This document shows, in pieces, positions 109-11,711 of a stretch of DNA of 11,711 bases (within the stretch, counting starts at the first letter, position 1; every line of letters begins with the position of its first letter). The DNA is taken from NCBI GenBank assembly GCA_945483525.1, contig CALYRV010000058.1:1-11711 (forward strand). The letters run 5' to 3'. Below the pieces are notes generated by a model. The model was not told where the DNA came from and did no database searches. It saw nothing but the letters and a program-made list of their open reading frames with translations. The DNA comes from an uncultured Verrucomicrobiota bacterium. GTDB lineage: Bacteria; Verrucomicrobiota; Kiritimatiellia; RFP12; UBA1067. The translations under genes and the position numbers were made by a program.

Positions 109-136
109 GGGGAATGGGGAGTGGGGAATGGGGAGA
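109..136. repeat. Heptamer tandem array, GGGGAAT family (4 units)
   Basis: Four consecutive 7-base units are read on the plus strand: GGGGAAT, GGGGAGT, GGGGAAT and GGGGAGA. They occupy nearly all of the 34-base gap between the glycosyltransferase stop (139) and the S4-protein start (104). The same family recurs in the opposite orientation at 1193-1227 inside the glycosyltransferase gene. The array leaves no room for a normal ribosome binding site for the downstream gene. Confidence 0.9.
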
Positions 137-138
137 GA

Positions 139-1386
139 TTAGAGTTTTTCAACTTCGGCGACGTAATCGCGATAGATGCGGGTGGCATCGAGTTCGGAGA
201 GGAGAGACGGGAAGTCAGGTGGCAGGTGGCAGGTGGCAGGTGGCACAGTGGAATTTAAATTCCTTTCTCCAACTCCAACTTCTTTCTCCAACTTCTCGAC
301 CAAAGAGCTCGGATCGCCATGGGTGTAGAGCGCTCCGCAATGATACTTATCGAGCAGCGCGGCGGATTCGCCGCGGAGAGAAGAGAGAATGTGGAGTCCG
401 AAACGCGCGTAGTCCGCGAACTTGTAGGGAATGCCGACACAAGATTCATCGGACATCGGGATGAGTCCGTAGGAGCAGGTAGCCGCCAGTTCAGCAAGCG
501 CCGATTCGTTAAGGTAGCCATGGAAACGAACACGGTCCGTGACGCCCTTCTCCGCGGTAAACTCCTTGAGAGCATCCTCCTGTTCGCCCTTTCCTGCGAT
601 ATCAAGCGTCAGCTGCGGATCAAGCGCCACCGCCTCGATCGCGGTGCGAAGATCATAGGTGCGTCCGAGGTTGCCGAGGTAGAGCAGTTTTTTAGTTGGT
701 GTTTTGAGTTGGAGTTGGAGAGTGGAATCAGAAAGCTTTATGCCGTGGTAGAAGCGGAGATAACGCTTCGCACCAGCGGACAGCGCGAGATCGGCATAAC
801 GATCGGCGACGCCGGTAACGAGATCGGCATGGGCGTAAAGATAGCGGACGTTGCGGCGGGAGCCGGAAAACAGCAACGGACCCAGCCAGCGTAACCCGCG
901 CGGCAGCAGACGGTAGAACGTTCCCGGCCAGTCGTCCATGATATCGACCACGAACTTCGCACCAACGGAATCGGCATAAGCCTTAGCGAACAAAGGCAGT
1001 CTGATCGGCGGCAGCGAGGCGATGACAACGTCGGGCTTCTTCTCCACTTTCGTCGCACAGGCAAGCCAGTTCGAGGCGAGCTTGCGGTGGGAAACGACGC
1101 GTGCAATGGATACGTTGTGGAAGTAAGGGCGAGTAGGAATGAATCGGACGGAAAAATTTTCCGACACCCTCGCTAGGTCGCTCGGGATACGACATTCTCC
1201 ATTCCCTATTCCCCGTTCCCCATTCCCCAACACCCGCTTCTGTTTTGTCGTGTGATTAAAATCGCTGGTGAAAAGCGTGACATCGTGTCCGGCATCCGCG
1301 AATGCTCGGGACATCATCCAGTACCGCTGGGGGCGATAGCCTTCCAGCGGCAGATTGTCGAAGGGATTGACGATCCAGACAGTCAC
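139..1386 (-). CDS. GT-B fold glycosyltransferase (GT4-like) with in-frame repeat insertions
   Basis: This 415-residue protein probably transfers a sugar from a nucleotide donor in cell-surface polysaccharide or glycan synthesis; the substrate is unknown. The N-terminal Rossmann half opens WIVNPFDNLPLEGYRPQRY (residues 4-22) with a GHDVTLFTSDFNH strand at 33-45. This is typical of GT4-type enzymes acting on lipid-linked acceptors. The C-terminal donor-binding half contains LLYLGNLGRTYDL (234-246), DIAGKGEQED (262-271), RVRFHGYL (285-292) and SCVGIPYKFADYARFG (315-330). The GTG start at 1386 overlaps the folD stop by four bases, which suggests translational coupling. Three segments look foreign to the family and coincide with tandem repeats in the DNA: about residues 52-79, 219-232 and 369-392. 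All fall between expected secondary-structure elements and keep the frame open, so the enzyme may still work. The TAA stop is at 141-139. Confidence 0.85.
   Translation of the reverse strand: MTVWIVNPFDNLPLEGYRPQRYWMMSRAFADAGHDVTLFTSDFNHTTKQKRVLGNGERGIGNGECRIPSDLARVSENFSVRFIPTRPYFHNVSIARVVSHRKLASNWLACATKVEKKPDVVIASLPPIRLPLFAKAYADSVGAKFVVDIMDDWPGTFYRLLPRGLRWLGPLLFSGSRRNVRYLYAHADLVTGVADRYADLALSAGAKRYLRFYHGIKLSDSTLQLQLKTPTKKLLYLGNLGRTYDLRTAIEAVALDPQLTLDIAGKGEQEDALKEFTAEKGVTDRVRFHGYLNESALAELAATCSYGLIPMSDESCVGIPYKFADYARFGLHILSSLRGESAALLDKYHCGALYTHGDPSSLVEKLEKEVGVGERNLNSTVPPATCHLPPDFPSLLSELDATRIYRDYVAEVEKL
216..243. repeat. Perfect heptamer array (CAGGTGG)x4 inside the glycosyltransferase gene
   Basis: Four identical CAGGTGG units stand head to tail (CCACCTG on the coding strand). 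They encode roughly residues 382-390 of the glycosyltransferase, a Pro/Thr/Cys/His-rich stretch just before the last helix. This is the only array in the window with four identical copies, which makes it the best candidate for slippage. A degenerate unit, CACAGTGG, follows and runs into the palindrome at 250-263. Confidence 0.92.
250..297. repeat. 14-base palindrome plus inverted TTGGAG-type repeat
   Basis: GGAATTTAAATTCC (250-263) is a perfect palindrome. To its right, 264-297 holds repeats of CTCCAACT/TTTCTCCAACTTC, which on the minus strand read GTTGGAG and AAGTTGGAGAAAG. To its left stands the CAGGTGG array. The two G-rich arrays therefore point inward from opposite strands towards the palindrome. 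The block encodes about residues 369-380 of the glycosyltransferase (VGVGERNLNSTV), a segment unlike normal GT4 sequence. Confidence 0.75.
693..731. repeat. Degenerate AGTTGG-type tandem repeat ending GTGGAATCAG
   Basis: Read on the plus strand, the units are TAGTTGG, TGTTTTG, AGTTGG, AGTTGG and AGAGTGG, followed by AATCAG. Unit lengths are 7, 7, 6, 6 and 7. The unit order and the terminal GTGGAATCAG match the element at 2277-2317, so the two look like copies of one dispersed element. Here it is translated as residues 219-232 of the glycosyltransferase (SDSTLQLQLKTPTK), in the linker between the two halves of the enzyme. Confidence 0.7.
1149..1192. repeat. In-frame palindromic insert in the glycosyltransferase gene
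   Basis: CGGAAAAATTTTCCG at 1149-1163 is a perfect inverted repeat: 7-base arms around one central base. It is followed at 1164-1192 by a GC-rich stretch holding a direct TCGCT repeat (1170-1174 and 1178-1182). The stretch abuts the heptamer array at 1193. It is translated without stops as CRIPSDLARVSENFS, between the first beta-alpha unit and the VRFIPTRPY strand of the enzyme, where GT4 relatives usually have a short loop. The layout recalls palindromic elements that insert into coding genes in frame, as in Rickettsia. I cannot tell whether it recurs elsewhere in this genome. Confidence 0.55.
1193..1227. repeat. Heptamer tandem array, GGGGAAT family (5 units), inside coding sequence
   Basis: The five plus-strand units are CATTCTC, CATTCCC, TATTCCC, CGTTCCC and CATTCCC, so the coding strand reads G-rich GGGAATG-type units. 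They encode the Gly/Asn/Glu-rich stretch LGNGERGIGNGE (about residues 53-64) of the glycosyltransferase. This is the same family as the array at 109-136 but in opposite orientation. Confidence 0.9.
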
Positions 1387-2261
1387 TTGGCCGCACGCCT
1401 AGCGGATTCGAGAGTGTTCCAGAGGAGCATGGTGATGGTCATCGGACCAACCCCGCCAGGAACGGGGGTAATGGCGCCAGCGACCTTAGAGCAGCTTTCG
1501 AAATCGGCGTCGCCGGCAAGGCGGAAGCCCTTCGGCTTCGTCGCATCGGGAATACGGTTCACACCGACGTCAATGACAACCGCACCAGGCTTCAGCATGT
1601 CGCCATTCACGGTGTCCGGACGCCCAGCGGCGACGACGACGATATCGGCCTGCCTGGTAAAGACCGAGATATCGGGCGTACCGGTGTGACACAGAGTGAC
1701 GGTCGCATTGGTCTGCCTACGCGCCAAGAGCGCGGCGACGGGTTTGCCGACGATATTGCTGCGTCCGATGACGACTGCGTGCTTGCCCTTGATATCCATT
1801 CCCGAAAATTCGATCAGCTTAATGATCCCGTGCGGAGTGCAGGGAAGGAAGCATTCGTCGCCGATCATCATCTTGCCGACATTGACGGGCGTGAAGCCGT
1901 CCACATCCTTCTCCGGAGCAATCGCGTCGATCACCGCCTTTTCGCGAATATGCTTCGGAACTGGGAGCTGGACGAGGATTCCGTGAATAGAGGTATCGAC
2001 GTTAAGCTCTTGAATCAACTTGATGAGCTCGGCCTCGGTCGTCTCCGCGGAGAGCCGAATCTCACGCGAATACATGCCGGCCTCGTTGCAAGCCTTCTCC
2101 TTCGCAGTCACGTAACTTACGCTTGCGGGATTGTCGCCGACGAGGATAACGGCGAGTCCGGGCGTCACGCTCTTCTCCGCCTTGAGCGCGGCGGTTCCCG
2201 CGGCGATTTCGGCACGCAGGTTAGCGGCCAGTTGTTTTCCATCAATGATCTTCGCACTCAC
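1383..2261 (-). CDS. folD: Bifunctional methylenetetrahydrofolate dehydrogenase / methenyltetrahydrofolate cyclohydrolase
   Basis: FolD interconverts 5,10-methylene-, 5,10-methenyl- and 10-formyl-tetrahydrofolate in the cytoplasm, using NADP+, and so feeds purine and formyl-methionine synthesis. Numbered from the chosen GTG, the protein has 292 residues, a normal length. Visible signatures are VGDNPASVSYVTAKEKAC (41-58), with the active-site Tyr50 and Lys54; GILVQLPVP (94-102); DVDGFTPVNVGK (119-130); the dinucleotide-binding VVIGRSNIVGKP (163-174); and GAITPVPGGVGPMTI (262-276). The frame stays open for another 37 codons upstream (to 2372), but that part overlaps gspK and translates a repeat array. 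The GTG at 2261 has GAGAGG about 8 bases upstream and begins exactly at the conserved AKIIDGK motif, so I choose it. The 3' end overlaps the glycosyltransferase start by four bases. The enzyme has no obvious link to the secretion genes before it and is probably simply co-transcribed. Confidence 0.96.
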   Translation of the reverse strand: MSAKIIDGKQLAANLRAEIAAGTAALKAEKSVTPGLAVILVGDNPASVSYVTAKEKACNEAGMYSREIRLSAETTEAELIKLIQELNVDTSIHGILVQLPVPKHIREKAVIDAIAPEKDVDGFTPVNVGKMMIGDECFLPCTPHGIIKLIEFSGMDIKGKHAVVIGRSNIVGKPVAALLARRQTNATVTLCHTGTPDISVFTRQADIVVVAAGRPDTVNGDMLKPGAVVIDVGVNRIPDATKPKGFRLAGDADFESCSKVAGAITPVPGGVGPMTITMLLWNTLESARRAAK

Positions 2262-2276
2262 TTGTTGATCCTCTCG

Positions 2277-2317
2277 CAGTTGGTTTTTAACAGTTGGTTG
2301 TTGGAAGGTGGAATCAG
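2277..2317. repeat. Heptamer array, CAGTTGG family, at the gspK/folD junction
   Basis: Five plus-strand 7-base units, CAGTTGG, TTTTTAA, CAGTTGG, TTGTTGG and AAGGTGG (2277-2311), are followed by AATCAG. The array fills most of the 52-base gap between gspK and folD, and its conserved tail contains the gspK TGA stop (2316-2314). The folD ribosome binding site lies just beyond the array. The unit pattern parallels the element at 693-731. Confidence 0.75.
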
Positions 2318-3534
2318 TCTTCACGCCATTTGATGTAACGAACCTTCTTATCCTTGACATAGGCCTCGGCATTCACCTCACGGAACATACCGCGAGACTC
2401 GCCGATGATCTTAACCTTGAAAACACTGTTCTGATCGGGAACAAACACCAGATACTGACTAGCATCATTACCGATCTGCACGCTGGAATCATAGTCATGA
2501 ACGCGCTCCAACATGTCGTTAAAATCACGATACGGCCACCAGGTGCGGGATTTATCGAAATCATCCCGCCCCTCCGGCGGCTCTTTCAATGCGGCGATGA
2601 TAGCATCAGCACGCTCCTGAGCGTCCTCATCATCATCCTCATCCGCGCCGGCTATACCAGGGATGGTCAGTAACTGTTCAACCGAACAGCTATTGGCGTT
2701 AAGCTTGGCGGTGCCGGAAGTACAGAAGAGATCCATGATACCACGGACATAGATCCGGTCCTCTTCCTTTTCATCAGGATTAAGGCATCCGCCCTTCAGC
2801 ACTGCCTGCCCGAAAGCATCTCTCCATCCGCGAATATAGGACATCTCCTTGATGTCAGGAATCGCAGCATTACGAGGATAACGCTTATCTTCGTCATCCA
2901 CCTTATCATCTTCGTAGAGCTCCTCGTACCACGACTCTTCGGCACCGAGTTCGCGTCCGTCGATTGCGGTCGTGACCGTATCCTCATCTCGCCAGTCATT
3001 CCAAGATGCGATCAATAAATCCATCAGGCGCTGGCGTCCGTCATCCTTAGTATCGACCTCAAAGTCTTCTGGGACTCCGTGAGAGCGCATGATCATCTCC
3101 CAGCGGAGGCGAAAGTTCTGGTCGCCACCTTCATAAAGGTCATTGACGTTGATGGCGTTCTTCTCTCCAGCATTGACAAGTTCGATTTCAACCTTGATCG
3201 TACCGTTACCGGGATTATCGGGATCTAGCAGGATCGGACCGATCGTGCACTTCGAGTCGCTCTTAAGAGCGCGTTTCTCACGTATCCAGCGATCATCCTT
3301 CAGCAGTTCTTCAATGTCGTCGTCTTCCGACCAGTCCCGAGCTTCAGAATAACCGGTCAGAACGACTTCCGCAAGCGCCTGTCCGGCATCCATCAGTCGG
3401 TTAACACGATTACGTTCGCGAACATAGACGTTGACACCAGTCTGCAACCGCGCCTCATAGGCAAAGCTTACCACCATCACGGAAAGCACCGCAATTATCC
3501 ACAGCACCAGCATGAGAATCGAGCCGCGTCTCAT
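2314..3534 (-). CDS. gspK: Type II secretion minor pseudopilin GspK
   Basis: GspK caps the pseudopilus tip together with GspI and GspJ in the periplasm. The 406-residue protein starts MRRG followed by SILMLVLWIIAVLSVMVVSF, a prepilin leader and membrane helix. As in known GspK proteins, the residue at mature position 5 is not Glu. The body shows the family landmarks AGEKNAINVNDL (122-133), a long insert region with an IASWNDWRDEDT stretch (175-186), and KLNANSCSVEQLLTIPGI (277-294), the helix-hairpin-like segment common to this family. The protein is very acidic, with runs such as DEDDDED near residues 298-304 encoded by a GAT/GAG-rich tract. The ATG at 3534 overlaps the gspJ stop by four bases. 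A length above the usual ~300-330 residues reflects acidic insertions. Assignment is by N-terminus, gene order and these motifs. Confidence 0.85.
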   Translation of the reverse strand: MRRGSILMLVLWIIAVLSVMVVSFAYEARLQTGVNVYVRERNRVNRLMDAGQALAEVVLTGYSEARDWSEDDDIEELLKDDRWIREKRALKSDSKCTIGPILLDPDNPGNGTIKVEIELVNAGEKNAINVNDLYEGGDQNFRLRWEMIMRSHGVPEDFEVDTKDDGRQRLMDLLIASWNDWRDEDTVTTAIDGRELGAEESWYEELYEDDKVDDEDKRYPRNAAIPDIKEMSYIRGWRDAFGQAVLKGGCLNPDEKEEDRIYVRGIMDLFCTSGTAKLNANSCSVEQLLTIPGIAGADEDDDEDAQERADAIIAALKEPPEGRDDFDKSRTWWPYRDFNDMLERVHDYDSSVQIGNDASQYLVFVPDQNSVFKVKIIGESRGMFREVNAEAYVKDKKVRYIKWRED

Positions 3535-4370
3535 TTGCGCCCCCTCCGCTTGTTGTCACCACTGGTTTTTTTAGCGCCCTTTGCATCTTCACTTGGAATC
3601 GACGCTCCATCCAGCGACTGTTCGTGGATCGGAATCCTAACGATGCGCATTACCGGAGCGGTGTTAGAGCGATAGCTCTTACCTTCGGGATCTGCGATAT
3701 GAAAAGTAAGCTCAACCTTATACGGAACGGAATTGGACTCAGAAAACTCGTCCTCGAACTTCCGCTTGTCGTTTTCTGAATCCTTGACTTCATCTGCACT
3801 TTTAAGCACCCTGCAGTTGAAGCCCACGATGCCGTCCGCGATCAGTACCGGTTCATACATCTCGTCATTGCTGAAGGTGTAATCCACAGAATTCTCGTTG
3901 TTGACAGGCCTGAGCGCAGTATCGGGGCAGCGACGGGCGTAAAGCCCAGTAGTTTGAATTTCAATGCACCGTCCGTTAACATCCCGATATTTACTGTTTC
4001 CCTCTTCAAGAACCATCACCTGCACGCGATGAACAGTATCGGCCACGGCGGACTTGGTGCCGACGATAGACGGACCAGTCTTGGACCATTCAATGACGTC
4101 AGAGCTGTCCGGATCATCGCCGTCTCCGTTATCAATCAGAACGAACCCATAGTTTTCATTCTGCTTGCCATCATGCGGATAGTACATACTACGGAGACCA
4201 GTGATGATCTGATCCAACGCATAATCGGAGCGTTGGGTCTTATCAATATAATCGGTAGATAGCTGCCACCCCGTCGAAACGGCGTCGAAAGTCATTATCG
4301 CGAGAACCGTGATAATGCCAGTCAGCATTACCGCGAACATCAGCTCCAGCAATGTAAACGCCTTCTTCAT
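3531..4370 (-). CDS. gspJ: Type II secretion minor pseudopilin GspJ
   Basis: The 279-residue protein begins MKKA followed by FTLLELMFAVMLTGIITVLAIMTF. This is a prepilin signal with Ala rather than Gly before the cleavage site and the conserved Glu at mature position 5, then a single membrane helix. The C-terminal half has EPVLIADGIVGFNCRVL and PYKVELTFHI, which correspond to the strand pair seen in GspJ proteins, and the protein ends in a Lys/Arg-rich tail. GspJ forms the tip complex with I and K. An in-frame GTG at 4382 would add MQSE, but the ATG at 4370 gives the standard short leader and is preferred. Its upstream region is a GTGCAGA-type heptamer array, leaving only a weak purine stretch as a ribosome binding site. 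The stop overlaps the gspK start by four bases. Confidence 0.85.
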   Translation of the reverse strand: MKKAFTLLELMFAVMLTGIITVLAIMTFDAVSTGWQLSTDYIDKTQRSDYALDQIITGLRSMYYPHDGKQNENYGFVLIDNGDGDDPDSSDVIEWSKTGPSIVGTKSAVADTVHRVQVMVLEEGNSKYRDVNGRCIEIQTTGLYARRCPDTALRPVNNENSVDYTFSNDEMYEPVLIADGIVGFNCRVLKSADEVKDSENDKRKFEDEFSESNSVPYKVELTFHIADPEGKSYRSNTAPVMRIVRIPIHEQSLDGASIPSEDAKGAKKTSGDNKRRGRK

Positions 4371-4372
4371 TT

Positions 4373-4407
4373 CACTCTGCACTCTGCACTACGCACTCTA
4401 CACTACT
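4373..4407. repeat. Heptamer tandem array, CACTCTG family (5 units), at the gspI/gspJ junction
   Basis: The plus-strand units are CACTCTG twice, then CACTACG, CACTCTA and CACTACT. On the coding strand this is the CAGAGTG family, a rotation of GTGCAGA. The array fills the gap between gspI and gspJ, contains the gspI TAG stop (4405-4403) and reaches to within two bases of the gspJ ATG. The other pseudopilin junctions are four-base overlaps, so the array probably entered here and separated two formerly overlapping genes (inference). The same family occurs inverted at 6410-6437. Confidence 0.9.
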
Positions 4408-4855
4408 CCTCTACTTTTCTCCAAAACGTGACGTAACTCTCCTCCTGATGGTTTCCGCGCAAGTCGTCGCCCCAGCGGACGGTAATACGAACAGTGTAGA
4501 GGTTGCCGATTCGCCTAATCTCGTCTTCGCTGGCATGCTTATTCAGCGCCTCTCGTTCCCAGGTGTAACCGTGATACCGGTCTTCCTGCTCGTTCGACAA
4601 CCGTTCTTCCGAAATCATTTCCCAGAGCTCTGTCGCCTTGGTCTCACGAACATCAAGGTCGCGTTCAGGGTCCTGAACGTCCGCCAGAGGATAAGCCATT
4701 TCCCCGAGGTCCATAACCTCTTGTGCGGTCTGCAGTTCAGTGGACGCGAGCATCATCTTCTGACTTGAAGAAAGCGACATCAAGATTCCAGTGATCCCCA
4801 ATCCCAGGATAATCGATGCCAGCAGCACTTCCAGCAAAGTAAATCCTGACTTCAT
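4403..4855 (-). CDS. gspI: Type II secretion minor pseudopilin GspI
   Basis: The 150-residue protein starts MKSG followed by FTLLEVLLASIILGLGITGILMSL. This is a short prepilin leader with Gly before the cleavage site, Glu at mature position 5 and one hydrophobic helix. The following ELQTAQEVMDLGEMAY segment (about residues 40-55) matches the amphipathic helix of GspI, where Ala/Gln/Glu-rich sequence follows the membrane segment. The C-terminus (YTVRITVRWGD) is the usual beta-sheet end of this small pseudopilin. GspI nucleates the I-J-K tip complex at the inner membrane. The start overlaps the gspH stop by four bases. The stop lies inside the heptamer array that separates this gene from gspJ. 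Confidence 0.85.
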   Translation of the reverse strand: MKSGFTLLEVLLASIILGLGITGILMSLSSSQKMMLASTELQTAQEVMDLGEMAYPLADVQDPERDLDVRETKATELWEMISEERLSNEQEDRYHGYTWEREALNKHASEDEIRRIGNLYTVRITVRWGDDLRGNHQEESYVTFWRKVEE

Positions 4856-5679
4856 CGTTCATCCTCCGGATCAAACACCTTAGCCGCGCCAAAACGGTCG
4901 ACGGAAATACAGAGCCCGTCATCATACTTCGTTCCCGATCGATAAAACCAGACCTTGTGCGGCTCCACACGTCCGTTAACCTCCCACACAAAACTGACAG
5001 GATTCTGCGACTCCTCGACCTTCACGGGTTCGGAAGACAGATCGGGTGATGCCTGCTCTGACTGCTTCTTCTTGGCACGATTTTCATCGAACTTGTTCAG
5101 CCAGAAATCTGCGGTAGAGAACACCGAGATCTTGGGCTTCGCACGTTCTTCGCGGAAATCCGCAAGCTCATCGCCGTCCTTGATCACCTTAAGCGCGATA
5201 CCGTGAAACACCTCGTTATCCGCCGGCTCGAACAGATAATCCTCAGTGGATTTACCCTCGCCGTCCTTGATCAACGGCTCATCAGCGTCATCGCCAATCT
5301 GCTGCGACTTAGCATCCAACACCTCCCCGCCATCCTCGGACAAATACACCTTCTCACCATCGAGGGTCTCTGCAACCATCGCCGGAGAATCGCTGAACGC
5401 CTTAGAGGTATGAACCTCAATACGTGCGCAAGTCTCACCATCTTCAACGACCGTGGAATACGTGATGATGCTCGGCTGCTTTGAGACCAACGCCATTGAT
5501 CGCGCAAGGCGAATCGTTGCAAAAGCGTCACGGACAGAGCCCTTAATCCGCGCACTATCCTGCCCCGCTCTTATGCTGACGACAGCGGTACTGGTCATCG
5601 CCGCGATAATCGCAACGATAACCAGAATCTCAATCAGTGTAAACGCCCTGCGCATAAAGACAGGGTCAACGAAGGTCAT
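4852..5679 (-). CDS. gspH: Type II secretion minor pseudopilin GspH-like
   Basis: The 275-residue protein has the prepilin signal MRRA followed by FTLIEILVIVAIIAAMTSTAVVS, with Ala before the cleavage site (residues 12/13 from the first ATG) and the conserved Glu at 17. The next part, ARIKGSVRDAFATIRLARSMALVSKQPSIITY, fits the GspH pattern of a helix running into the first beta strand. GspH links the tip complex to the GspG shaft. It is clearly longer than a typical GspH (about 150-200 residues), with a charged middle and C-terminal part. The first ATG (5679) overlaps the gspG stop by four bases and is favoured by coupling, with AAGGA almost touching it. The ATG at 5655 would give a minimal MRRA leader and cannot be excluded. 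The identification as H rests on gene order and the N-terminal half. Confidence 0.75.
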   Translation of the reverse strand: MTFVDPVFMRRAFTLIEILVIVAIIAAMTSTAVVSIRAGQDSARIKGSVRDAFATIRLARSMALVSKQPSIITYSTVVEDGETCARIEVHTSKAFSDSPAMVAETLDGEKVYLSEDGGEVLDAKSQQIGDDADEPLIKDGEGKSTEDYLFEPADNEVFHGIALKVIKDGDELADFREERAKPKISVFSTADFWLNKFDENRAKKKQSEQASPDLSSEPVKVEESQNPVSFVWEVNGRVEPHKVWFYRSGTKYDDGLCISVDRFGAAKVFDPEDER

Positions 5680-6107
5680 TCCTTAGACGCCTGCTTCGGC
5701 TTCTTGTCGGAACGGACGTCATCTTCAGTGTTGAACTGCCCGTCCGGACCAGCGGAAACGATGACGTAGTTCCTGCCCTTCTTCTCAAGACGGCAATCCG
5801 TCCCCCACGGATCGACCAGCGCATCCTCGCCGCCAGAGAGTATCGACTCGCCCTCGGAATCCTCCTTGACCAGATCCTTAAGATCAGTAATGTTCTTCTG
5901 GTGATTAAGATTATACGTGACGACTGCGTTCTGGATGGTGTCGACCGTACTCTTGGCTGCGGTAATCTTCGCTCCTTCGGATAGCCCTCCGAGATTCATC
6001 ACCGCCACAGTACTAAGGATACCGACAATTGCAACGGCGACCAGAATTTCAATAAGGGTGAAACCAGCACGCATCGCAACCGCAATCTCATTTTCTTCTT
6101 TACGCAT
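5676..6107 (-). CDS. gspG: Type II secretion major pseudopilin GspG
   Basis: GspG is the main subunit of the periplasmic pseudopilus that drives secretion of folded proteins through the outer-membrane secretin. The 143-residue protein has a 15-residue leader ending MRAG, cleaved before FTLIEILVAVAIVGILSTVAVMNL, with Glu20 as mature Glu5. The C-terminal part has the GspG hallmarks DALVDPWGTDCRL (95-107), containing the DPWG motif, and VIVSAGPDGQFNTEDDV (114-130), the loop that binds calcium in GspG proteins. The ATG at 6107 is backed by a strong AAAGGAGT ribosome binding site. An internal ATG at 6074 would give only an MRAG leader and has no such site. The gene is first in the G-H-I-J-K block and its stop overlaps gspH by four bases. 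The strong ribosome site fits the high expression needed for the shaft subunit. Confidence 0.93.
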   Translation of the reverse strand: MRKEENEIAVAMRAGFTLIEILVAVAIVGILSTVAVMNLGGLSEGAKITAAKSTVDTIQNAVVTYNLNHQKNITDLKDLVKEDSEGESILSGGEDALVDPWGTDCRLEKKGRNYVIVSAGPDGQFNTEDDVRSDKKPKQASKE

Positions 6108-6110
6108 TTT

Positions 6111-6118
6111 ACTCCTTT
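6111..6118 (-). promoter_or_regulatory. Strong ribosome binding site of gspG
   Basis: The minus strand reads AAAGGAGT, then AAA and the ATG at 6107. This is the best Shine-Dalgarno match in the window and fixes the longer gspG leader as the likely start. Confidence 0.85.
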
Positions 6119-6155
6119 CAATAAACCAATGTCAGCTCGTCGAAACTCGCTAAAC

Positions 6156-7082
6156 TCACGAATCGGATTTCCTACTAGATATTATATCAAAAATCTGCGT
6201 GAAAACCGCAGCAAAGAACACCATGATACAGCCAGCGGACTGCGCCGCCGTCATTCTATCACCCAGAACCACATAACCAGACAGCGCGGCAAAGACGGAC
6301 TCCATCGAAAGAATGACTCCGGCGACCGCTGGCGACGTGCGGGACTGTCCGAAATTCTGAAGCGTATAGGCGATACCGGACGAGAACACGCCGAGATAGA
6401 AAACGGGAAGTGCTGAGCGCAGGGTGCAGAGTGCAGAGAGGGACAGACGGGAGGATTCGGAGTGCAGGAAGAGGAACGGGACGGACAGGAATGCGGCGGT
6501 GAGGAGCTGAACCGCGGACATCACCAGTACGTCGCAGCGTTTGGCGTAATGATCCACCACCAGCATCTGCACAGCGAAGAGGAACGCGCACAGGATGGTC
6601 CAGAGCTCTCCCCGTCCGACCGTCATCCGCTCGTCCGTCATGCAGATGAGATACGTGCCGGCGATAGCAGCCGCCACCCCCACCCAGATATGCCATCCCG
6701 GCAGCTTGCGGTAAAGCACCAGGCACAGCACAGGGATGACGAACATGTAGTTCGTCGTGAGGAAACCGGAAATCCCTGGGGTGGTGTAGCCGATTCCTAT
6801 CTGCTGTGCGGCCATTGCGGCGAAGAGCGGGACACCGCAGAGGAAACCGGCGAGAAGCGAGCCGGAAGCGCGGAACCCGGAACGCGGAGAGGTGCCGCGA
6901 TTACGGCTAGTGAGATTGCGGAAGAAGATGCAGAGAAAGAGGAAGAGTCCACCGAGAATATTGCGAAAGCAGGTGACTGCGAACGGACCCAGAGCCTCTC
7001 CTCCGACCTTCTGGGCGAGAAAAGCCGTTCCCCAGATGAAAGTGGTCAACAGTAGAATCAGCGCACCCATAAGAGAAGCCAT
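6156..7082 (-). CDS. EamA/DMT-family 10-helix membrane exporter
   Basis: The 308-residue inner-membrane protein consists of two EamA repeats of five helices each. The first begins ALILLLTTFIWGTAFLAQKVGG, carrying the typical TFIWGTAF helix and a proline in GPFAVTCFRNILGGLFLF. The repeat ends with GVAAAIAGTYLICM. The second opens GELWTILCAFLFAVQMLVVD and ends with the family's SPAVAGVILSMESVFAALSGYVVLGDRMT segment. DMT transporters export amino acids, metabolites or drugs; the substrate cannot be read from sequence. The position after amino acid importers makes amino acid handling plausible (inference). Two inter-helix loops carry heptamer-derived inserts, near residues 64-74 and 216-225. The ATG at 7082 is chosen. 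A TTG one codon upstream and an ATG at 7070 are alternatives, and none has a clear ribosome binding site. A 6-base-stem inverted repeat (ACTGAC/GTCAGT, 7088-7103) lies across the junction with the upstream permease stop. Confidence 0.88.
   Translation of the reverse strand: MASLMGALILLLTTFIWGTAFLAQKVGGEALGPFAVTCFRNILGGLFLFLCIFFRNLTSRNRGTSPRSGFRASGSLLAGFLCGVPLFAAMAAQQIGIGYTTPGISGFLTTNYMFVIPVLCLVLYRKLPGWHIWVGVAAAIAGTYLICMTDERMTVGRGELWTILCAFLFAVQMLVVDHYAKRCDVLVMSAVQLLTAAFLSVPFLFLHSESSRLSLSALCTLRSALPVFYLGVFSSGIAYTLQNFGQSRTSPAVAGVILSMESVFAALSGYVVLGDRMTAAQSAGCIMVFFAAVFTQIFDIISSRKSDS
6410..6437. repeat. Heptamer tandem array, GTGCAGA family (4 units), inside the EamA gene
   Basis: The plus-strand units are GTGCTGA, GCGCAGG, GTGCAGA and GTGCAGA. 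This is the same family as 4373-4407 in opposite orientation. It encodes SALCTLRSAL in the loop before the helix PVFYLGVFSSGIAY, so the exporter carries a repeat-derived loop insert. Confidence 0.8.
6863..6891. repeat. Heptamer tandem array, CGGAACC family (about 4 units), inside the EamA gene
   Basis: The plus-strand units are CGGAAGCG (8 bases), CGGAACC, CGGAACG and CGGAGAG. It encodes a Ser/Gly/Arg-rich stretch (TSPRSGFRASG) between the second and third membrane helices of the exporter. It is more degenerate than the other arrays, so the family assignment is less certain. Confidence 0.65.
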
Positions 7083-7098
7083 CAAACACTGACAATGG

Positions 7099-7749
7099 TC
7101 AGTTGTAGTAACTGTAACGCTTCTCCAGACGTTCCATCGTAAAAGCGACGATATAGTTGAAGATATAGTAGAAGACGCCGGCGGCGATGAGCGGAGTCAT
7201 TGTGGTGTTAGCGGACGAAAGCTGCTTGGCAATGGTGAACATCTCCGTTACCGCGATGGTGAACGCAAGCGACGTATCCTTGACGAGCGTTATCACCTCA
7301 TTGCCGACCGCGGGAATGATGCGTTTGACCACCTGTGGAAGGATAATCTTGAAGAAAGTGTGACCACGAGAGAAACCGAGCGCCGAAGCCGCCTCGTACT
7401 GTCCGACATCGATGGACTGGATGCCTCCGCGGTAGATTTCACCGAAATACGCCGCATAGTTAAGCCCGAAGGCAAGGACTGTTGCAAGAATACGCGGGTA
7501 GGTCGCAAGCGGGAGCCCGAACAGGATGTATGGCGCAAAATAAACGAAGATAATCTGCAGCATCAACGGCGTGCCGCGGACAACCGAGATGAAGAGGCAG
7601 AAAAAACTACTGATCAGCGAATTCTTTGACATCCGCCCGAGAGCGACGACGAAACCGAGGGGCAGTGCAATTAGCAGTGTGAACACAAAAATCTCCACGG
7701 AGACCACCAGGCCCCCGAGGAGATCAGATATCATCGCCCAGATATTCAC
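7099..7749 (-). CDS. Polar amino acid ABC transporter permease (second system)
   Basis: This 216-residue inner-membrane subunit belongs to the HisM/GlnP family. The N-terminal helix region is followed by SVVRGTPLMLQIIFVYF (55-71), the RGTP motif typical of amino acid permeases. The cytoplasmic EAA loop, EAASALGFSRGHTFFKIILPQ (119-139), docks onto the ATPase, and AVGNEVITLVKDTSLAFTIA follows it. Five membrane helices are expected. The GTG start at 7749 overlaps the stop of the binding-protein gene by four bases. There is no ATPase gene after it, so it probably uses the ATPase encoded just upstream (8516-9370). The substrate is a polar amino acid of unknown identity. Confidence 0.92.
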   Translation of the reverse strand: MNIWAMISDLLGGLVVSVEIFVFTLLIALPLGFVVALGRMSKNSLISSFFCLFISVVRGTPLMLQIIFVYFAPYILFGLPLATYPRILATVLAFGLNYAAYFGEIYRGGIQSIDVGQYEAASALGFSRGHTFFKIILPQVVKRIIPAVGNEVITLVKDTSLAFTIAVTEMFTIAKQLSSANTTMTPLIAAGVFYYIFNYIVAFTMERLEKRYSYYN

Positions 7750-8519
7750 TTCAATATCAGCGCCGAGGGTTCGATGCCGTACTGGACGGCGATCTTCGCG
7801 GCGGTGCCATCTGCGAAGAGCTTCTTGAGCTCAGCCTCGACCTGGTTCTTGAGCTCTTCATTCCCCTTCTTGAATCCGATACCGTAGGTCTCGGTCATAA
7901 CGATATCATCGAGATAGCGGAACCGGCCCGGAAGATCAGACATCTTCTTCTTAGCAACACCAACATCCATCGCAACCGCCTCGACGCCTCCGGCGTTGAG
8001 TTCATTTACCGCCTGGTTGTAGTTAGGCATCACCACGAGTTCCTTAAAGGTGGCTCCGAGCGCAGCCTTCTCACCGTCCTTCTGAAGCGCCTTCTGGACC
8101 GGAGTGTCGGTCTGGACGCCGACGATCTTACCGGAAAGATCCGCAAGCTTCTTAATTGGGGAATCAATCTTCACGAGCACGACCTGGGAGTTGTCGACAT
8201 ATGGAGCCGACCAAGTGTAACCATCTTCACGCCCCTGCATGGTGAAGCCGTTCCAGATGCAGTCGATTGATCCGGAATTGAGCTCCATATCCTTGGAATC
8301 CCAGTTGATCGGATTGGCGACAAACTTCCACCCCTTCTTCACGCAGACAGCACGGGCGAGATCAAGGTCGAAACCCTTGTATTCGGAGCCGTCCTTGAAT
8401 CCGTAGGGAGGAAAATCAGCATCGAAACCGACAATGAACTTTCCATCGGTAAGCGTAGAACGCTGGGAACAACCACAAAGCGCCGCCGTGGCGGCGAAAA
8501 CCATCAGAAGCCGTTTCAT
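7746..8519 (-). CDS. Amino acid ABC transporter substrate-binding lipoprotein (second system)
   Basis: The 257-residue periplasmic binding protein has a signal peptide ending in the lipobox LCGC, with Cys17 as the lipidated residue. The mature part follows the family-3 binding-protein pattern. It opens [17 protein letters not shown], continues with [10 protein letters not shown] and then [23 protein letters not shown] (71-93). [12 protein letters not shown] (96-107) places Arg97 where the ligand carboxylate is usually held. [13 protein letters not shown] (133-145) and AMDVGVA (183-189) supply the second-lobe contacts, with Asp185 probably at the amino-group position. The ligand cannot be named. 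The start overlaps the ATPase stop by four bases, and the stop overlaps the permease start. A GC-rich inverted repeat (8481-8496) lies in the signal-peptide codons and could fold in the mRNA shortly after the start. Confidence 0.92.
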
Positions 8520-9370
8520 TTGTTATTCTCCTTGATTTTACTGGCAATCTTCTCAATCTCCTCAACAGTGATGCGCTTATCAGCCGCAGCATCAACGATC
8601 ATCTGGGCGAGATCGTCCGAGACAGACTGTTCACCCTTGACTTTGCCCAGAAACTCGCCTAGACGTCCGTCATGCTTCTGATCAAAGATCTCATGCGGCG
8701 TACCTTCGGCCGCGATCCGCCCGCCCTCAAGGAAGAGGACGCGCGTGGCAACATCACGCGCGAAACGCATTTCATGAGTGACGACGACCATCGTCATGCC
8801 CTTCTTCGCGAGATCCTTCATGACATCCAGCACCTCACCGACCATCTCAGGATCAAGCGCGGAAGTCGGCTCATCGAAAAGCATGACCTTCGGCTCCATG
8901 GCGAGGGAACGAACAATCGCGACACGCTGCTTCTGTCCGCCGGAAAGCTGCTGAGGATAAGCCTTAGCCTTCCCTTCAAGTCCGACCATCTTGAGCAGTT
9001 CCATCGCCTTCTTCTCTGCTCCCGCGGCGGAAACGCCGCGGACGAGCTTCGGCGCGAGAGTGATGTTGTCGATGATCGTCAGATGGGGGAAAAGATTGAA
9101 GTGTTGGAACACCATCCCCATCTCACTACGTACCAAATTCTTAGTCTGGTCATCGGCCTTCACGATGTCGATACCGTCAAAGAAGATTGAACCGTCGGTC
9201 GGCTGTTCCAGCAGATTCATGCACCTGAGGAACGTCGACTTGCCGCCTCCAGAAGGACCAATCATTACGACGACCTCGCCTTTGCTGATCGTCGTGGAGA
9301 GTCCCTTCAGCACCTCCAGGTCCCCGAAACTCTTCTTCAGTCCGTCAATTTTCAGTAATGTCTCAGCCAT
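8516..9370 (-). CDS. Polar amino acid ABC transporter ATP-binding protein with C-terminal extension
   Basis: This GlnQ/HisP-type ATPase powers amino acid import from the cytoplasmic face. From the ATG at 9370 it has 284 residues. It shows Walker [10 protein letters not shown] (38-46), the Q-loop in [13 protein letters not shown] (86-98), signature LSGGQKQR (142-149), Walker [14 protein letters not shown] (162-174) and the switch His199 in VVVTHEM. The reading frame is open 26 codons further upstream, but that extension is unlike the family and overlaps the permease gene. Relatives usually end near 240-250 residues. Here about 36 extra residues (249-284) form a predicted helical tail with [14 protein letters not shown], resembling a degenerate TerB/EF-hand-like segment. 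It lies after the first permease gene and overlaps the second binding-protein gene by four bases. It is the only ATPase in the cluster. Confidence 0.95.
9022..9041. other. Strong inverted repeat inside the ATPase gene
   Basis: CCGCGGCG and CGCCGCGG form perfect 8-base arms around a 4-base loop (GAAA on the plus strand, TTTC on the coding strand). It encodes part of the [10 protein letters not shown] stretch between the Q-loop and the signature motif. There is no T-run after it on the coding strand, so it is not an intrinsic terminator. A stable mRNA hairpin is possible but no role is shown. Confidence 0.5.
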
Positions 9371-9419
9371 ATTCAAATTTTTCTGATAACCAACTGCACC
9401 GCAGCCTAACTTCGCGCGA

Positions 9420-10130
9420 TCACGAATCATTATGCACCGGATCGGCACCGGTGTTCCTCAGATAACGTTCAAGCTTGCCCAACAACCAGGTGAAAGTCAC
9501 GACCAACACCAGGTAGATCGCCGCAACCGTGAGATACGGCAGGTAAACCGAGTATGTCTGGGAGCGGATGATGTCTCCGCCCTTGGCAAGATCGATGAGT
9601 GCGATGTAGCCGACGATCGAGGTATCTTTCATCAGCACGATGAATTCGTTACCGAGCGCCGGCAGCACGTTTCGCACCGCCTGCGGGATGACGATCTTAA
9701 CCATCGTCCTCCAGTAAGAGAGGCCGAGCGCACGCCCAGCCTCCATCTGGCCGGAATCAATAGACATAATTCCCGCCCTCAGGATCTCGGCCTGATAGGC
9801 GCCGGAATTGAGACCGAAGGCGATGATCGCAATCAGCACCTTCGAATCGACACTCCGCAAGATGATATAGTAAGTGATAAGGAGTTGAACCACCATCGGG
9901 GTTCCCCGAATCACCGTAAGGTATACCTTCGAGATCGAGCTGGCGACGGGGAAGAGCCCGTACTTGTCATGAGACGAACGGATCACCGCCACCAGGAACC
10001 CGATGAAAAGCCCGACGACAATCGAGCACAAAGCGACCTCAAGCGTTACCCCGAGACCTCCCAGGAGATATTCATACCTCGCGTTCTTTACGAAACACAG
10101 GTAGAAATCGTCATATAGGGACTGCAACAT
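9420..10130 (-). CDS. Polar amino acid ABC transporter permease (first system)
   Basis: The 236-residue inner-membrane subunit of a polar amino acid importer is in the HisM/GlnP/ArtQ family. [30 protein letters not shown] (21-50) forms the first long hydrophobic region. [19 protein letters not shown] (73-91) carries the RGTP motif, and [21 protein letters not shown] (130-150) is the EAA loop that contacts the ATPase. [24 protein letters not shown] follows, as in relatives. The ATG at 10130 has no clear Shine-Dalgarno sequence. The gene lies 46 bases after the first binding-protein gene and 49 bases before the ATPase gene. Those two gaps hold no convincing promoter or terminator, only weak 4-base-stem inverted repeats in the first. 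Confidence 0.93.
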
Positions 10131-10176
10131 TTAAACACTAACGGCTTGCAACTGAAATCAGCTTCTCAGCTCACAC

Positions 10177-10911
10177 TCACTTGTCCTTGAGCGAGTCGGA
10201 CTCCTTCGTGTACATCTCAATCCACTTGTCCAAGCGCCCATCAGCCTTACACTCAGTAATGACGGCATTGATAGTCGCCAGCAGCTCGGGCTGCCCCTTC
10301 TTGATTGCCACCGCGTACTCTTCGGACGTGATGAAATCGGAAATCGCGAGATCGGGTTCGCCCTTCACGCAGTTCTTGGCGGGATCAATGTCAGCGATAA
10401 CAAAATCGCACCGCCCGCTCTTGAGCGAAGCGCACGCCTCCGCAGGCGAATTGCAGCGTTCAGGCTCCTGCTTGAGCTCCTCGAGGACGAAGTTCTCAGA
10501 TGTGGTTCCAGCCTGGACTCCGATCCTCTTACCCTTAAGCTGAGACTTATCGGTGTAGGGATTAGACTTCTTGTAGATCACGACAATGCCCGTCTTGACA
10601 TACGGAATCGAGAAGTCAACGTTGTGCTTGCGGTCTTCAGTGATGGTGATGCCAGCGGCCGCGAGATCCGCCTTGCCGGAGACCACGGCGGGAATCACGG
10701 AATCAAAAGCAATCGTCTCCGACTGGAAGGGACGGCCAAGCTTGTCAGCGACCGCCTTGCAGATCTCGACATCAATACCGACTATCTCCTGTCCGCGCAG
10801 GAATTCATAGGGCGGGAACGTCGCCTCCGTGATCATCTTAAGCGTATTATCCTGCTTCGCGCATCCCGCGAGAAGCAACGCGCCCATCAATCCCAACATC
10901 AACTTTTTCAT
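10177..10911 (-). CDS. Amino acid ABC transporter substrate-binding lipoprotein (first system)
   Basis: This 244-residue family-3 periplasmic binding protein is anchored as a lipoprotein. The signal peptide ends in LAGC with Cys17 lipidated. The fold signatures are MITEATFPPYEFL (26-38), VGIDVEICKAVADKLG (44-59), SGKADLAAAGITITEDRKHNVDFSIPY (78-104, with Arg94 as the likely carboxylate ligand), RIGVQAGTTSENFV (129-142) and DFVIADIDPA (169-178, with Asp175 as the likely amino-group ligand). This pattern is shared by glutamine-, arginine- and lysine-type binders; I cannot choose among them. It differs clearly from the second binding protein in the cluster, so the two probably recognise different ligands. 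AGGAAG lies just upstream of the ATG at 10911 and supports the start. Confidence 0.94.
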   Translation of the reverse strand: MKKLMLGLMGALLLAGCAKQDNTLKMITEATFPPYEFLRGQEIVGIDVEICKAVADKLGRPFQSETIAFDSVIPAVVSGKADLAAAGITITEDRKHNVDFSIPYVKTGIVVIYKKSNPYTDKSQLKGKRIGVQAGTTSENFVLEELKQEPERCNSPAEACASLKSGRCDFVIADIDPAKNCVKGEPDLAISDFITSEEYAVAIKKGQPELLATINAVITECKADGRLDKWIEMYTKESDSLKDK

Positions 10912-10913
10912 TT

Positions 10914-10919
10914 CTTCCT
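10914..10919 (-). promoter_or_regulatory. Ribosome binding site of the first binding-protein gene
   Basis: AGGAAG lies 2 bases before the ATG at 10911 on the minus strand, with a second AAAGGAT further upstream. Both lie in the 34-base gap after the antiporter gene. No promoter is evident in that short gap, so co-transcription with the antiporter gene is likely. Confidence 0.6.
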
Positions 10920-10945
10920 AATCCTTTCTATTATCTTTTGATTTT

Positions 10946-11711
10946 TCACTTAATAAGTTTGCGGAGGAAGTTCTCGAGAAGCGCCGACTCCTCCATGGTG
11001 ATGACGCCGTCCGCCCGCGCGGCGGCAAGAGCCTTCTGGAACTCCTCCTGCCCTTCGATGCTCTTGAGCAGCTGCTGGAGCCGTGCGGCCTCATCCATGT
11101 CAATCTTGCCGTCGGAGAGGATTTCCTTCGCCATGCTGTTCAACGCCGTTGCAAGCGCGGTGTTGCCGACGGACTGCGAGAACTTGCGGAAGATCAGCGG
11201 CACCATGTCGTCCGAAATCGCGCCACGCAGGAAGAGACGCATGAAGAACAGTGTAACCAGCATAAGAACTATCGCGAGAGGCAACGCGCTCCAGACCGAC
11301 CCCACGAACGGCGTGAAGGCATAAGCAACGAACGAGACCGCCGCCACGACAAGCACATAGGGAAGCTGCGTGTTCACGTGTATGACGTGGTTGCACTGAG
11401 CGCCGGCGGAAGCCATGATCGTCGTGTCGGAGATCGGCGAGCAGTGATCGCCGCAAACCGCACCAGCCATGCAGGCGGAAACGGCGACGATGGTCATCGA
11501 GCTATTCGGAATCGCCGCAAGGACGATCGGAATCAGAATGCCGAACGTACCCCAGCTCGTTCCAGTTGAGAACGCGAGGATAATCGCAATCACGAAGATG
11601 ATCGCCGGCAGGAAGTTCTGAAGGCCCGCGGCAGGTCCGTTGATGATGTCGGAGATGAAGATCTTCGCGCCGAGCGAATCGGTCATCGTCTTCAGCGTCC
11701 ACGCGCAGCAG
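10946..11711 (-). CDS. NhaC-family Na+/H+ antiporter, C-terminal part, with helical tail
   Basis: The gene enters from the right edge; about 254 C-terminal residues are visible, beginning CCAWTLKTMTDSLGAKIF. The segment AWTL...LG, then IILAFSTGTSWGTFGILIPI, then MAGAVCGDHCSPISDTTIMASAGAQCNH and HVNTQLPYVLVV, is the diagnostic core of NhaC-type antiporters, with the GDHCSPISDTT motif thought to line the ion path. These inner-membrane proteins exchange Na+ for H+; some relatives (MleN) couple this to organic acids. After the last hydrophobic helices, the final 65 or so residues (10949-11143) leave the membrane. They carry two DGxIxxxE motifs, SDGKIDMDE and ADGVITMEE, each followed by a leucine-rich helix, which suggests a small TerB-like or degenerate EF-hand-like cytoplasmic domain. 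That tail is not usual for the family. An internal ATG at 11686 is not the true start. Confidence 0.9.
   Translation of the reverse strand, partial: CCAWTLKTMTDSLGAKIFISDIINGPAAGLQNFLPAIIFVIAIILAFSTGTSWGTFGILIPIVLAAIPNSSMTIVAVSACMAGAVCGDHCSPISDTTIMASAGAQCNHVIHVNTQLPYVLVVAAVSFVAYAFTPFVGSVWSALPLAIVLMLVTLFFMRLFLRGAISDDMVPLIFRKFSQSVGNTALATALNSMAKEILSDGKIDMDEAARLQQLLKSIEGQEEFQKALAAARADGVITMEESALLENFLRKLIK

What the first reader, a model, noticed from the sequence alone, without database searches (positions are those of the whole stretch)
109..6891. Heptamer tandem arrays spread through genes and gene junctions in one half of the window
Seen directly: short arrays at 109-136, 216-243, 1193-1227, 2277-2311, 4373-4407, 6410-6437 and 6863-6891 have a 7-base period, with looser relatives at 264-297 and 693-731. 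They fall into about four families and two families occur in both orientations. The transport half (7099-11711) shows none on reading. Similar heptanucleotide repeats (STRR sequences) are known from heterocystous cyanobacteria, but this gene content is not cyanobacterial. Heptamer repeats of unrelated sequence sharing only their period point to a mechanism that makes or spreads 7-base units rather than to one mobile sequence.
Basis: partly seen in the sequence, partly recalled or inferred. Interest (0 to 1): 0.75.

Follow-up and report, generated by a model that had tools for sequence, protein, structure and literature searches.

The report
Scattered seven-base DNA repeats in Kiritimatiellae
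Bacteria of the Kiritimatiellae carry many short arrays of seven-base words, between and inside genes, that differ even between close relatives; such repeats are a known but poorly understood kind, and this group would make their origin testable.

Summary
The arrays are real: of the seven listed, four are beyond chance, two are weak, and one (2277-2311) was not found by TRF. Protein relatives place the window in Kiritimatiellae; its own genome is not held, so I used relatives. In 2.24 Mb sampled from 46 genomes of one family there are 78 period-7 arrays, against 27 of period 8, 4 of period 10 and 5 of period 11. A word recurs at many places in a genome. Orthologous sites differ: arrays are present in one species and absent in two whose glycosyltransferases are 96% identical; one array differs by 28 bases (four units); glycosyltransferase loops carry different words in different relatives, some with steps of 7 or 14 residues. 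Word choice depends on lineage: GGGGAAY is common in the family searched, and the reverse-order word GGGGCGA is abundant in one genome elsewhere in the phylum. Best account: a library of heptanucleotide repeats that slips in whole units, is copied to new places (inferred), and is filtered by reading frame. This is the known STRR/LSSR kind in a new lineage; no copying enzyme was identified.

The parts
109..135 (.). GGGGAAT/GGGGAGT array, 3.7 copies, downstream of the glycosyltransferase stop codon (139-141)
   Evidence: TRF
139..1386 (-). Glycosyltransferase gene (PF00534/PF13692/PF13579) that carries four of the repeat stretches in three loops
   Evidence: alignment A1
216..245 (.). CAGGTGG array, 4.3 perfect copies, in the C-terminal loop
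   Evidence: TRF
250..263 (.). 14-base perfect palindrome GGAATTTAAATTCC between the 216-245 and 264-297 stretches; the peptide RNLNSTV recurs at this loop in several relatives
   Evidence: sequence; the 16-mer GTGGAATTTAAATTCC was found in 0 of 114 family genomes
264..297 (.). Loose CTCCAAC-like array facing the 216-245 array
   Evidence: sequence; not reported by TRF
689..720 (.). GTTGGAG-like repeat in glycosyltransferase loop 2
   Evidence: TRF (periods 13 and 6)
1193..1229 (.). GGGGAAT array (C-rich on the + strand), 5.3 copies, in glycosyltransferase loop 1
   Evidence: TRF
2277..2311 (.). Loose GTTGGTT-like repeat at the junction of the 2314-3534 gene and the folD-like gene
   Evidence: sequence; not reported by TRF
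4373..4414 (.). CACTCTG array (AGTGCAG on the other strand) between ORF 4403-4855, whose end it overlaps, and the start of the next gene
   Evidence: TRF
6409..6438 (.). AGTGCAG array in the EamA transporter gene; this loop has nearly constant length in the closest relatives
   Evidence: TRF (score 39)
6862..6888 (.). Weak CCGGAAC array in the EamA transporter gene, in a loop of variable length
   Evidence: TRF (score 31)

Best explanation
These are members of a dispersed library of heptanucleotide tandem repeats. Arrays grow and shrink in whole 7-base units (shown in DNA at one site between genes; inferred from 7- and 14-residue steps in glycosyltransferase loops). Arrays with the same word at different places are copies of one another (inferred from shared words and shared variant positions; ectopic copying such as template switching or gene conversion would do it). 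An arbitrary word can become abundant in one lineage (shown by genome counts). Within genes only lengths that keep the frame, and words without stop codons, survive, so arrays are found in loops and in short gaps between genes (partly shown). The arrays probably have no fixed function (inferred).
For: Period: 78 period-7 arrays of at least 3 copies in 2.24 Mb from 46 genomes, against 4 (period 6), 27 (8), 4 (10) and 5 (11). On the 1.84 Mb, 45-genome part: 42 against a Markov null mean of 0.4 for period 7, and 18 against 1.0 for period 8. Dispersal: three units of GGGGARY in 53 of 114 family genomes, up to 187 overlapping matches in one; reversed pattern 1 match. A re-ordered word has 6 matches in 5 of 114, its own reverse 9 matches in 2 of 114. 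A TCAGGAG pattern occurs in 13 of 114, reversed in 0. Lineage choice: GGGGARY in 20 of 387 phylum genomes, the reversed pattern 388 times in G386; in G386's family 2 of 29 hold it. Shared variant positions: position 7 C/T in 11 of 13 GGGGAAC arrays, position 4 A/G in 5 of 5 AGGAGTC arrays. Gain or loss. Unit steps: 28 bases between G006 and G087; 7 residues between P0122 and P0123 and between the window and P0124, 14 between P0136 and P0137. Different words in the same loops.
Against: Copying between places was not observed, only inferred; selection for a degenerate word (GGGGAAY) would look alike. Period 8 is also in excess. In the 57 glycosyltransferase pairs at 80% identity or more, only 29 of 235 gaps are of 7 or 14 residues (pairs overlap and are not independent); many words are replaced rather than slipped, and the DNA of those proteins was not seen. 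One array-bearing transporter loop keeps its length in the closest relatives. The reading-frame filter is partly built into the way genes were called.
Confidence: 0.62

Rival explanations
1. Each array arose on its own by replication slippage of local sequence, 7 bases being a polymerase-preferred length; no spreading.
For: Unit-wise length changes; published proposal that 7 bases match the polymerase contact (as told in PMC4679880 and PMC4692102).
Against: The same word at up to 187 overlapping matches in a genome with almost none of the reversed word; shared variant positions; word families differ by lineage.
Confidence: 0.1
2. The arrays are functional sites (protein or RNA binding, G-quadruplex, hairpin terminator) kept by selection for degenerate words.
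For: Fixed variant positions; place near gene ends; inverted pairs in L115 and L061; published G4 formation of GGGNATC repeats (PMC4692102, abstract).
Against: Presence and absence upstream of one gene among close relatives; 34 of 78 arrays lie inside called genes; the favoured word differs between lineages; many words lack G-tracts.
Confidence: 0.16
3. The arrays are carried or made by a mobile-element enzyme (reverse transcriptase or REP-type Y1 transposase).
For: Y1_Tnp found in 21 of the 22 genomes with 10 or more GGGGARY matches, against 68 of the other 92 (counted); palindrome-like motifs beside arrays in L062/L068/L073 and G088 (by eye).
Against: RVT_1 was not found in 10 of the 22 rich genomes. 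Y1_Tnp was not found in G107 (25 matches) and is common in genomes without the word; genome size and kinship confound, and completeness is unknown. The one present/absent comparison shows no clean insertion or target duplication.
Confidence: 0.07
4. Chance or ordinary low-complexity coding sequence.
For: The three loose stretches (264, 693, 2277) and the weak transporter arrays.
Confidence: 0.02

Closest known systems
Heptameric G-rich repeats GGGNATC of Xanthomonas and Nostoc (Rehm et al. 2015, PMC4692102; abstract and sections 3, 10, 14, 16 read)
   Same: 7-base unit with variable positions, dispersed, both orientations, mostly intergenic, some convergent inverted pairs, length variation between relatives
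   Different: [quoted passage not shown] here several unrelated words (plus 8-base ones) occur in one genome, many inside called genes, and different words at the same protein loop
STRR of filamentous cyanobacteria (PMC2670836, passages; PMC4692102 introduction cites three heptanucleotides of Calothrix)
   Same: Several 7-base repeat families in one organism, some hairpin-forming
   Different: Different phylum; the original STRR paper was not read and the words were not compared
TAACTGA repeats of Beggiatoaceae, some Cyanobacteria and Bacteroidetes (MacGregor 2015, PMC4679880; passages and introduction read)
   Same: Heptamer direct repeats between genes, often just upstream of start codons, patchy across phyla
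   Different: One word, whose close variants are rarely repeated there; here variants are mixed in the arrays
Long simple sequence repeats with a heptanucleotide maximum (Mrazek 2007, known only as cited in PMC4679880 and PMC4692102)
   Same: Excess of 7-base repeats among bacterial repeats
   Different: The original paper was not read

Membership tests
Dispersed heptanucleotide repeats (LSSR/STRR kind) | Tandem units of 7 bases beyond chance | tested here: met
   window; relatives
Dispersed heptanucleotide repeats (LSSR/STRR kind) | Many places per genome, both orientations | tested here: met
   (relatives; own genome not held)
Dispersed heptanucleotide repeats (LSSR/STRR kind) | Preference for places between genes | tested here: met
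   44 of 78 arrays are between called ORFs or overlap an ORF end, although ORFs cover about 92% of the sample; crude gene calls
Dispersed heptanucleotide repeats (LSSR/STRR kind) | Copy number varies between relatives at the same site | tested here: met
   28-base difference G006/G087; 7- and 14-residue steps
Cyanobacterial STRR in the strict sense | Found in cyanobacteria, with the published STRR words | tested here: not met
   named protein relatives and loci are Kiritimatiellae and neighbours; the words themselves were not compared
G4-forming heptamer repeats | Four or more G-tracts in one strand, folding shown | tested here: inconclusive
   GGGGAAY arrays could qualify by sequence; many other words do not; nothing was folded or measured
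Phase-variable contingency repeats | Copy changes switch a reading frame or promoter on and off | tested here: inconclusive
   the clear coding steps seen are 7 or 14 residues, so in frame; one array lies next to a -35-like box
Transposed element (MITE, REP, retroelement) | Clean insertion with target duplication, or a linked enzyme | tested here: not met
   the bases beside the array differ too and no duplication is seen, one site only; searches give no required enzyme

The most novel reading that the evidence does not exclude
Some of these bacteria have a copying activity with a 7- (and less often 8-) base register that takes an arbitrary seed word and multiplies it through the genome, leaving word bursts (GGGGAAY, strongest in G111 and G059; GGGGCGA in G386). 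It would be a bacterial analogue of the satellite library of eukaryotes, in which the period is set by an enzyme and the sequence by history.
Probability: 0.17. Interest if true: 0.8.

Novelty: new member of a known kind. Interest (0 to 1): 0.48.

Why it matters
Why bacterial repeats favour seven bases, and how one word comes to lie at many places, is open in the papers read here. This group offers close relatives with and without an array at the same site, unit-wise changes, word replacement at the same protein loop, and word bursts, so slippage, copying and selection can be told apart by comparison. The arrays also lengthen enzyme loops, in some cases by seven residues, a route to new protein segments. 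In ordinary annotation they explain odd repeated peptides in these genomes.

Tried and rejected
A palindromic element as carrier: GTGGAATTTAAATTCC, from the C-terminal loop, was found in 0 of 114 genomes. Reverse transcriptase as generator: not supported. Y1 transposase: association confounded. Viral spread: in IMG/VR the GGGGARY pattern gave 55 stretches and its reverse 80, so no viral excess of this word (80 may be a listing limit). Universal preference for one word: suggested, overturned, where the reversed pattern has matches in 11 of 387 genomes and is abundant in one. Cyanobacterial plasmids for a cross-phylum comparison: two accessions were not in the collection, and no cyanobacterial DNA was compared. 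Stop-free words inside genes (31 of 34, against 33 of 88 strand readings outside, Fisher 4e-8): not used as strong evidence, because a called ORF cannot hold a stop-bearing 7-base array.
Full report
The observation. The window (54% G+C) holds on one strand a glycosyltransferase gene, a folD-like gene, genes with type II secretion/pseudopilin features, an EamA transporter gene and transport genes (ten proteins were scanned against Pfam). TRF finds period-7 rows at 109-134, 216-245, 1193-1229, 4373-4404, 6409-6438, 6862-6888 and, marginally, 10333-10355. Among offsets 2-30, only 7 and its double 14 have hits in a strict test, at four places for offset 7, with none at offset 7 in 200 shuffles. 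The stretches 264-297, 693-731 and 2277-2311 are loose. Several words recur within the window.

Where it comes from. The window's own genome is not held. The few protein relatives that bear an organism name are Kiritimatiellae or Kiritimatiellia. The 27 loci are titled Kiritimatiellae, Verrucomicrobia, Lentisphaerae or uncultured bacterium, several of them from goat, sheep, yak or deer gut. That the window's species belongs to this very family is likely but was not shown; the best glycosyltransferase match there is 57% identical.

The period. In 1.84 Mb from 45 genomes there are 42 period-7 arrays of at least 3 copies against 0.4 expected from a block Markov null, 18 of period 8 against 1.0, 4 of period 10 against 1.2 and 3 of period 11 against 0.6. 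With 400 kb of G111 added (2.24 Mb, 46 genomes): 78, 27, 4 and 5. Periods 9 (31) and 12 (12) are also seen and are multiples of three. Arrays are patchy: 36 in 400 kb of G111; 10 in 400 kb of G006, 7 in 223 kb of G059, 0 in 320 kb of G097. The stretches were contig starts or lay round the glycosyltransferase, so the sample is not random.

The words. Three units of GGGGARY occur in 53 of 114 family genomes, up to 187 overlapping matches in G111; the reversed pattern has one match. A re-ordered word has six matches in 5 genomes, and the reverse of that has nine in 2 genomes. A TCAGGAG pattern occurs in 13 of 114, reversed in none. Over the phylum the picture changes: GGGGARY is found in 20 of 387 genomes, of which 8 belong to the family above and hold nearly all matches (the most outside it is 8, in G389), while the reversed pattern has 388 matches in G386, 24 in G302, 10 in G309 and 1-6 in eight others; the listed matches of G386 are mostly GGGGCGA units. 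In G386's family only 2 of 29 hold it, and the GGGGARY order occurs in 3 of those 29. So word choice follows lineage, and the period is the common property. Within word families the same unit positions vary at different places: position 7 (C/T) in 11 of 13 GGGGAAC arrays from four genomes, and position 4 (A/G) in 5 of 5 AGGAGTC arrays from three genomes.

Presence and absence at orthologous sites. Upstream of the glycosyltransferase, G087 (L061) has an inverted pair of AGGAGTC arrays of about 90 bases just before the -35-like TTGACT. G005 (L031) and G053 (L066), with glycosyltransferases 96% identical to it, have none there; the left flank is nearly identical, while on the right some 30 bases up to the -10-like box differ in part. 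G088 (L059) has its own array at the same place; G007 (L029), G006 (L028) and G094 (L058) have none. Gain seems likelier than loss, but no species tree was built. At G006 L038 1566-1626 the array is 28 bases (four units) longer than in G087 and 7 bases longer than in G053 as aligned. A second site 0.9 kb away has AACATCC/AACTTCA words in G006, CTCCAACT-like words in G087 and G053, and a palindrome-like insert in G088. The 15-copy array at G006 L054 9632-9735 stands where G053 has about 1.76 kb with an open frame of 584 codons, flanks 98% and 96% identical.

Arrays inside genes. The three glycosyltransferase loops that bear the window's repeats are where relatives differ: at loop 1 P0122 and P0123 encode TNHEPR-type peptides instead of GNGERGIGNGE, and others have short loops. 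Of the 32 glycosyltransferase loci, four (L067, L068, L073, L074) have a period-7 array inside the gene, in loop 1 (CGGGTTT) or loop 2 (CCTCTTC twice, GGGGAAC), and one (L034) a period-8 array in loop 2; L062, 92% identical to L073, has only a short loop there. Steps of 7 residues, the length of three units, separate P0122 from P0123 and the window from P0124, and 14 separate P0136 from P0137; but 206 of the 235 gaps in the 57 pairs compared have other lengths. In the EamA transporter one array-bearing loop varies in length, but the other (6410-6437) has nearly constant length in the closest relatives, so insertion is not shown there (23 of the 120 listed relatives aligned).

Position. By crude ORF of 78 arrays lie inside genes, 20 overlap a gene end and 24 lie between genes, with ORFs covering about 92% of the sample. 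Many touch a stop or start codon, as in the window at 4373-4414.

What is known. Heptamer excess, convergent inverted pairs, intergenic preference and slippage at 7 bases are in print (PMC4692102, PMC4679880, PMC2670836; parts read as stated under Closest known systems; passages of PMC6749651). A search for Kiritimatiellae with tandem repeat gave one paper, seen as a listing only, and the 25 listed of 4,023 papers hold none of the heptamer terms; so no report of these repeats in Kiritimatiellae was seen in the held library. It is therefore filed as a new member of a known kind, with unusually clear word turnover.

Limits. Copying between places is inferred. Copy-number variation of the window's own arrays was not seen at the DNA level.

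Noticed in passing
L062, L068, L073, glycosyltransferase loop 2: The loop is bracketed by GGGGACAG...CCCC-type palindromic motifs, present also in L062, which has almost no array.
   Followed up: partly
L348 (G088 C33:490-670): A palindrome-like insert different from the heptamers lies inside an array-bearing gap between two genes.
   Followed up: no
L054 9632-9735 against L343: A 15-copy array occupies the place of a gene-sized stretch in a related genome, as if it marked a deletion junction.
   Followed up: partly
G386 (phylum search): A burst of GGGGCGA repeats, 388 overlapping matches in a 4.4 Mb genome; only one other of 29 family genomes holds it.
   Followed up: partly
L115 7740-8090; L018 5880-5980: 8-base AAATGTGN units directly precede 7-base arrays in two different genomes, so composite arrays of two words recur.
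   Followed up: no
L177 13896-13990; L172 13220-13293: Facing, partly matching inverted pairs of period-10 and period-8 arrays, the same layout as the heptamer pairs.
   Followed up: no
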